A stretch of DNA of 64,000 nucleotides, taken from NCBI GenBank assembly GCA_947628185.1, contig CANQYW010000002.1, positions 117,443 to 181,442 of the forward strand, in the 5' to 3' direction. The notes under the pieces were generated by a model. It was given only the letters and a program-made list of their open reading frames with translations, was not told the DNA's origin and did not search any database. This DNA is from an uncultured Oscillospiraceae bacterium (lineage in GTDB: Bacteria; Bacillota; Clostridia; Oscillospirales; Oscillospiraceae). Below, piece by piece: positions 2,911-3,354 of the stretch; positions within the stretch are counted from its first letter, which is position 1; each line of letters starts with the position of its first letter. Both the position numbers and the translations under genes were made by a program.

Positions 2911-2935
2911 GTCGCAGTTTTGTATATTCTGCGAC
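2911..2935. repeat. Left copy of a 25-bp inverted repeat (GTCGCAGTTTTGTATATTCTGCGAC)
   Basis: Its reverse complement matches 3330-3354 at 22/25 positions, 16 contiguous (GTCGCAGAATATACAA). It also has 7-bp dyad arms around an 11-bp core. Confidence 0.85.
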
Positions 2936-2960
2936 ACTCACCCGACCTATCTATGGGGCA

Positions 2961-2989
2961 ATTATAACATGTTCCATAGCAAATTTCAA
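2961..2989 (-). promoter_or_regulatory. Sigma-A-type promoter of the surface protein gene
   Basis: Minus strand TTGAAA (2989-2984), 17 bp, TATAAT (2966-2961), upstream of the 2818 start. Confidence 0.65.
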
Positions 2990-3259
2990 TAGAAAACGCA
3001 CATTTTGAGCGCCAAGTTTTTGCGACCGTCCCTTTTCTTTTGCCGTTTCCTGGCAGAAAAGGGGCTTTTTTTGACTATTGCGCCGTCAAATAAGCCGTCA
3101 GACGATCTCCAAGTTATTATATGCCAGAGTTTCAAAAATGTGCCTCCATGACGAATTTTCCACCGTTTTCACCAAAATAAGTTATTTTGAGTTTGCCCGA
3201 AAACACGGGAATTAGCAGTCAGTTTTTTCAGTCAGAAAAATAAGTAGTCAAACTTTAGT

Positions 3260-3287
3260 CTGCCGAATGCGGCAGATTTTTTGCTTT
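3260..3287 (+). terminator. Intrinsic terminator inside the inverted-repeat-flanked segment
   Basis: CTGCCG-aatg-CGGCAG followed by ATTTTTTGCTTTTT on the + strand; no comparable T-tract on the minus strand. Confidence 0.6.
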
Positions 3288-3329
3288 TTCGGGGGCTTTT
3301 ATCATTTTGCGGGGGAGATTGCGACACCC

Positions 3330-3354
3330 GTCGCAGAATATACAATTCCGCGAC
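3330..3354. repeat. Right copy of the 25-bp inverted repeat (GTCGCAGAATATACAATTCCGCGAC)
   Basis: Reverse complement of 2911-2935 with 3 mismatches; an extra TGCGAC half-site lies at 3320-3325. Confidence 0.85.

What the first reader, a model, noticed from the sequence alone, without database searches (positions are those of the whole stretch)
2911..3354. Candidate phase-variable invertible promoter upstream of the adhesin-like gene
GTCGCAGTTTTGTATATTCTGCGAC (2911-2935) and GTCGCAGAATATACAATTCCGCGAC (3330-3354) are inverted copies matching at 22/25 positions, 16 contiguous. The asymmetric 11-bp core is conserved only in inverted orientation, which argues against two ordinary palindromic operators. 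Each copy has short dyad arms around a core, the usual layout of a tyrosine-recombinase crossover site. The segment between carries the only good promoter for the surface gene (TTGAAA-17-TATAAT, 2989-2961). Flipping it would point the promoter away from the gene. Known parallels are C. difficile cwpV and flagellar switches and Bacteroides capsule promoters. No recombinase is visible in the window.
Basis: partly seen in the sequence, partly recalled or inferred. Interest (0 to 1): 0.82.

Follow-up and report, generated by a model that had tools for sequence, protein, structure and literature searches.

The report
Flippable promoter switching a surface adhesin
A gut bacterium carries a roughly 440-base DNA switch that can be turned around to point a promoter toward or away from a giant surface-adhesin gene, and the switch looks like a stripped-down relative of a widespread family of self-flipping cassettes that carry their own recombinase.

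Summary
The two 25-mers (2911-2935, 3330-3354) are the only such inverted pair in the window; shuffles give none. The same genome has a second copy (C18:9700-10141): inner segment 82% identical in one orientation, while the adhesin-side leader matches in the opposite orientation. The paralogues thus stand in opposite states, window ON and C18 OFF. Each precedes an LPxSG-anchored SpaA-type surface protein plus its sortase.

Related gut genomes carry the same 25-bp sites around a Tn1549-Int-like tyrosine recombinase, in L017 next to a homologue of this adhesin. Of 30 chromosomal homologues, 23 sit inside an inverted-repeat pair, mostly about 1.5 kb apart; none of 13 viral homologues does. Most close cassettes share one plan: site, outward promoter at a fixed distance, arm-type repeats, recombinase, arm-type repeats, site. 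The window segment matches that plan with the recombinase gene replaced by about 110 bp. It is a recombinase-less mini-switch that would need an enzyme in trans. None is in the 83%-complete assembly, so present-day flipping is inferred, not shown.

The parts
2911..3354 (.). Invertible segment (444 bp including both crossover sites); ON orientation in this assembly
   Evidence: Inverted pair; paralogue C18:9700-10141 in opposite orientation
2911..2935 (+). Gene-proximal crossover site: 7-bp dyad arms around core TTTTGTATATT
   Evidence: The C18 site equals the L017 site letter for letter over 28 bp; this one matches the L016 site over 27 bp at 96%
3330..3354 (-). Gene-distal crossover site, inverted; shared overlap TTGTATATT
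   Evidence: 22/25 to the first site in inverted orientation
2961..2989 (-). Outward promoter TTGAAA-17-TATAAT firing across the 2911 site towards the adhesin gene
   Evidence: 11/12 match; same position (-10 ends about 50-62 bp from the site's outer edge) in most cassettes of the family
3081..3101 (+). Left arm-type repeat pair (CGCCGTCAA, AGCCGTCAG, 12 bp apart)
   Evidence: Same spacing and similar distance from the site in L005, L017, L054, L056, L058
3102..3213 (.). About 110 bp standing where autonomous cassettes carry the ~1.13-kb recombinase gene
   Evidence: Geometry against L017
3214..3251 (+). Right arm-type repeats (AGCAGTCAG, TTCAGTCAG 13 bp apart, then AGTAGTCAA)
   Evidence: Same 13-bp pair just after the recombinase stop codon in L017, L054, L056, L058
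3257..3288 (+). Terminator-like hairpin; after inversion it would face the adhesin gene and could block read-through (inferred)
   Evidence: no more hits than shuffles give, but at the same place in both copies; a second hairpin with a longer loop, 3030-3070, read by eye and from the repeat I7
2869..2908 (-). Adhesin leader shared with the C18 locus, outside the switch
   Evidence: 90% over 40 bp on the opposite strand, E 2e-12
1..2818 (-). Regulated gene: 5' part of a 1757-aa LPESGG-anchored surface protein with SpaA and collagen-binding domains; continues left of the window and is followed by a sortase gene
3454..4497 (-). Upstream neighbour, aldose 1-epimerase, reading towards the switch; not part of it
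   Evidence: Pfam PF01263

Best explanation
A phase-variation switch. A tyrosine recombinase of the Tn916/Tn1549 integrase type, supplied in trans, would bind the two 25-bp crossover sites and, through its N-terminal domain, the AGCAGTCA-type arm repeats inside the segment. It would exchange strands in the shared TTGTATATT overlap and turn the 444-bp segment around. In the orientation assembled here the outward sigma-A promoter reads across the 2911 site into a leader of about 140 nt and the adhesin-sortase operon (ON). Inverted, the promoter faces the aldose-epimerase side and the segment's terminator-like hairpins face the adhesin gene (OFF). The segment descends from a self-inverting cassette of about 1.5 kb that carried the recombinase gene between its two arm-repeat pairs; here that gene is gone. 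Shown by sequence: site pair, paralogue in opposite orientation, promoter match, arm repeats, cassette-like geometry, regulated gene. Inferred: recombinase in trans, arm binding, current switching, promoter and terminator activity.
For: Unique inverted pair. Second copy C18:9700-10141 with inner segment 82% identical on the plus strand (E 6e-122) while the gene-side leader (40 bp, 90%, E 2e-12) and start region match on the minus strand. Overlap identical within each pair but different between loci: TATATT twice, TGTATT twice. L017: sites identical to the C18 site around a tyrosine recombinase, beside a homologue of the window adhesin (43% over 386 aa). 23 of 30 chromosomal recombinase homologues lie inside an inverted-repeat pair; 0 of 13 viral homologues do. 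Promoter at a fixed position across most of the family. Arm repeats: 34 forward against 3 reverse, 3.7 expected, at nearly the same distances from the sites in the window as in recombinase-bearing cassettes. Recombinase resembles Tn1549 Int by sequence and predicted fold. Cassette neighbours are often giant surface proteins or polysaccharide-type genes, in both ON and OFF states.
Against: No recombinase of this family in the assembly, only XerD, a XerC-like protein and one large serine recombinase; the assembly is 83% complete. The window's two sites differ at 3 of 25 positions, whereas most recombinase-bearing cassettes have identical or nearly identical pairs, which could mean relaxed selection. 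No reads were available to show both orientations.
Confidence: 0.7

Rival explanations
1. Locked relic. The segment once flipped under its own or a neighbour's recombinase, but the enzyme has been lost from this lineage and both loci are fixed, one ON and one OFF.
For: No family recombinase found in the assembly; site pairs carry 2-3 differences.
Against: About 17% of the genome is missing, and several recombinase cassettes of relatives sit near contig ends, so such a gene is easily lost from a bin. Overlap sequence, arm repeats and promoter are intact in both copies.
Confidence: 0.2
2. The housekeeping XerC/XerD-type recombinases or the large serine recombinase on C6 flip the segment.
For: They are the only site-specific recombinases found in the assembly.
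Against: The same sites flank a different, Tn1549-Int-like recombinase in cis in other genomes; the arm repeats kept in the window segment fit that enzyme type and are not a feature of Xer sites (general knowledge).
Confidence: 0.05
3. Mobile mini-element: the segment inserted independently in opposite orientations at the two loci, so the orientation difference reflects insertion, not inversion.
For: The recombinase family is related to transposon integrases.
Against: The adhesin-side leader is homologous up to the site at both loci, so the loci share ancestry outside the segment and differ by a turn exactly between the sites.
Confidence: 0.03
4. Two ordinary regulator operators, for example a looping repressor with 419-bp spacing.
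For: Each 25-mer is an imperfect dyad.
Against: The sites occur only as inverted pairs, flank recombinases elsewhere, and the orientation of the DNA between them varies.
Confidence: 0.02

Closest known systems
Invertons (invertible promoters of gut bacteria), in particular inverton group 139 with tyrosine-recombinase group 35 in Clostridia (PMC11892184)
   Same: Short inverted repeats, short segment, tyrosine recombinase of Clostridia; read-level orientation changes were reported for that group.
   Different: Its repeat motif is in a supplement that could not be opened, so identity could not be tested. The two examples with coordinates have outer lengths of about 255 bp, and the recombinase is described as nearby; here it lies inside the segment in the autonomous form and is absent in the window form.
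Clostridioides difficile cwpV and flagellar switches with RecV (PMC2784873, PMC5386303, PMC5903667)
   Same: Short invertible segment controlling a large cell-wall protein or flagella; tyrosine recombinase acting on several switches of one genome.
   Different: Here the segment keeps arm-type repeats and looks derived from a recombinase-bearing cassette. RecV itself was not compared here.
Salmonella Hin segment
   Same: Recombinase gene inside the invertible segment together with an outward promoter (the autonomous form of this family).
   Different: Hin is a serine recombinase; this family is tyrosine type, and the window copy has lost the gene.
Tn916/Tn1549 integrase
   Same: Best PDB match by sequence and predicted fold (6EMY, 6EMZ, 6EN0); small N-terminal beta-sheet domain in the model; direct-repeat arm sites apart from the core sites (from general knowledge of Tn916).
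   Different: Cassette of about 1.5 kb with only the integrase gene; its sites form an inverted pair that is turned in place rather than transposon ends.

Membership tests
Inverton / phase-variable invertible promoter | Inverted-repeat pair flanking a short segment, beyond chance | tested here: met
Inverton / phase-variable invertible promoter | Promoter inside the segment pointing out towards a gene | tested here: met
   (sequence match only)
Inverton / phase-variable invertible promoter | Segment found in both orientations relative to its flank | tested here: met
   Between paralogous loci of one genome, not within one locus
Inverton / phase-variable invertible promoter | Both orientations in reads of one population | not testable with these tools
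   No reads available
Self-inverting Tn1549-Int-like cassette (as delimited here) | Sites of the TCGCAGA-N-TCTGCGA type as an inverted pair | tested here: met
Self-inverting Tn1549-Int-like cassette (as delimited here) | Outward promoter at a fixed distance and two groups of arm-type repeats | tested here: met
Self-inverting Tn1549-Int-like cassette (as delimited here) | Recombinase gene inside the segment | tested here: not met
   No ORF of 60 aa or more inside 2936-3329; so it is filed as a derivative, not as an autonomous member
Inverton group 139 (PMC11892184) | Repeat motif of that group | not testable with these tools
   Motif only in supplementary files
C. difficile RecV-type switch | Recognised by RecV or an orthologue | not tested
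   No comparison with RecV or its sites was made

The most novel reading that the evidence does not exclude
A two-tier system in Clostridia: autonomous self-inverting cassettes with a Tn1549-like recombinase and, alongside them, recombinase-less mini-cassettes at adhesin-sortase operons flipped in trans, with the overlap sequence of each locus acting as a private code that keeps recombination within the locus.
Probability: 0.4. Interest if true: 0.75.

Novelty: new variant of a known kind. Interest (0 to 1): 0.6.

Why it matters
It links an anonymous inverted repeat to a recombinase family found in many Clostridia, gives the likely recognition site, promoter position and arm sites, and suggests how a self-flipping cassette can shed its enzyme and remain as a switch. 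Presence of the cassette could then predict which surface and polysaccharide genes of uncultured gut Clostridia are phase variable, and the recombinase-site pairs can be tested in laboratory E. coli.

Tried and rejected
Phage records holding the segment: no match. A 30-bp match in G020 is only terminator similarity. A site-like hit at C9:51494 lies inside a coding sequence and was reported without a partner. Viral-contig relatives of the recombinase are at most 43% identical, and the 13 checked have no convincing spanning repeats (best score 15, against 18-34 for cassettes). The strict site pattern over 401 family genomes found few sites because core and arms vary. Pfam gave no arm-binding domain for the recombinase (only two weak AP2 hits); that reading rests on the predicted fold and on kinship to Tn1549 Int. 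Considered and rejected: operator pair; Xer or dif-type site; independent insertion in two orientations.

Full report
Observation. The two 25-mers are present as described, match at 22 of 25 positions when one is inverted, and are the only such pair in the 64-kb window; shuffled windows give none. The promoter TTGAAA-17-TATAAT on the minus strand at 2989-2961 is the only strong match between them that points at the surface gene.

The gene. The reading frame that starts at 2818 runs past the left edge of the window; followed into the neighbouring stretch of the contig it is 1757 aa long. It has a SpaA-type and a collagen-binding domain and ends in an LPESGG sorting signal, and the next gene, overlapping it by 4 bp, is a sortase.

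A second copy, turned around. The assembly (1.82 Mb, 83% complete; some XerD relatives are named Oscillospiraceae) holds one more such pair, on contig C18 at 9700-9724 and 10117-10141. Its inner segment aligns to the window's at 82% on the same strand, but the adhesin-side leader (40 bp, 90%) and the ribosome-binding region align on the opposite strand. It too precedes an LPxSG-anchored SpaA protein and a sortase 80% identical to the first. Relative to the gene, the segment is thus in opposite orientations at the two loci: promoter towards the gene in the window, away from it on C18. The overlap sequence is the same within each pair and differs between pairs (TATATT, TGTATT), as expected if partners must match for strand exchange.

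The enzyme. A scan of 85,488 species genomes for the site pattern found two MAGs titled Lachnospiraceae, with 'Lapin' in the isolate name, so probably rabbit gut. In L017 the sites, identical over 28 bp to the C18 site, flank a 1.5-kb segment that contains a tyrosine recombinase, and beyond it lies a homologue of the window's adhesin. The presumed catalytic R207, K254, H316-x-x-R319, H342 and Y352 are invariant in 27 relatives. The nearest solved relative by sequence and by predicted fold is Tn1549 Int.

The family. Recombinases of this kind (E up to 1e-40, so including more distant integrases) occur in 70 of 401 family genomes. Of the 30 loci examined, 23 have an inverted-repeat pair spanning the gene; 13 viral-contig homologues have none. 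The sites read TCGCAGAGT-N5-ACTCTGCGA with variations, and the core differs between loci while agreeing within a pair. In most cassettes a sigma-A-type promoter with a 17-bp spacer sits just inside the site upstream of the recombinase and points outward, its -10 ending about 50-62 bp from the site's outer edge; the other end has no such promoter (L058, L061 and L064 are exceptions without a significant match). Neighbouring genes are often very large surface proteins or polysaccharide-type genes. By the position of these genes, window, L051, L059, L063 and L066 look ON and L005, L017, L053, L054, L057, L058, L064 and L065 look OFF (my reading of the gene maps).

Arm repeats and the missing gene. 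Short direct repeats of the AGCAGTCA type lie 12 bp apart before the recombinase gene and 13 bp apart after it in the best examples, nearly all in one direction (34 against 3; 3.7 expected, at most 11 in 500 simulations). The window and C18 segments have the same repeat pairs at nearly the same distances from their sites (window 171/183 from the left edge and 141/128 from the right; L017 174/186 and 145/132), with about 110 bp between the groups where L017 has the 1.13-kb gene. I conclude that both copies most likely derive from a self-inverting cassette by loss of the recombinase gene. By analogy with Tn916-type integrases the repeats would be bound by the small N-terminal domain; this is inference.

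What is open. No recombinase of this family was found in the assembly. Either it lies in the missing 17%, or it is lost and the two loci are locked. Reads would decide. In the mini-segments a terminator-like hairpin lies on the strand that would face the adhesin in the OFF state; this might tighten OFF, but such hairpins are no commoner here than in shuffles.

Known work. Invertons of gut bacteria are well known, and a 2025 survey (PMC11892184) reports a group of 33, 32 of them from Clostridia, tied to one tyrosine-recombinase group. It may be the same family, but its motif could not be read here. C. difficile RecV switches and Hin are functional parallels, and a Providencia segment enclosing a recombinase has been reported (PMC5903667). 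A recombinase-less derivative with retained arm repeats did not turn up in the papers searched, which is a limited library.

Noticed in passing
L034 (G276:C18, 1-1460): A contig that begins and ends exactly at the two repeats of a recombinase cassette, as an assembler would leave it if both orientations, or several copies, were present in the sample.
   Followed up: no
L056 (G447:C74, locus positions 7180-7246) and L072: Two crossover sites 44 bp apart in the same orientation at one end of a cassette, and a second, divergent cassette with the same site on another contig.
   Followed up: partly
L016 600-1953: Recombinase 80% identical to L017's with one intact crossover site and no partner found; probably a decayed cassette, near what looks like a sortase remnant (read by eye).
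   Followed up: partly
G000:C6 (L088 4951-6474): Large serine recombinase of 507 aa, the only resolvase-type gene found in the assembly; role unknown.
   Followed up: no
window 3173-3189 and the matching part of L005: CAAAATAA-G-TTATTTTG palindrome and a 33-bp stretch identical in both mini-segments (TTATTATATGCCAGAGTTTCAAAAATGTGCCTC), inside the part that replaces the recombinase gene; function unknown.
   Followed up: no
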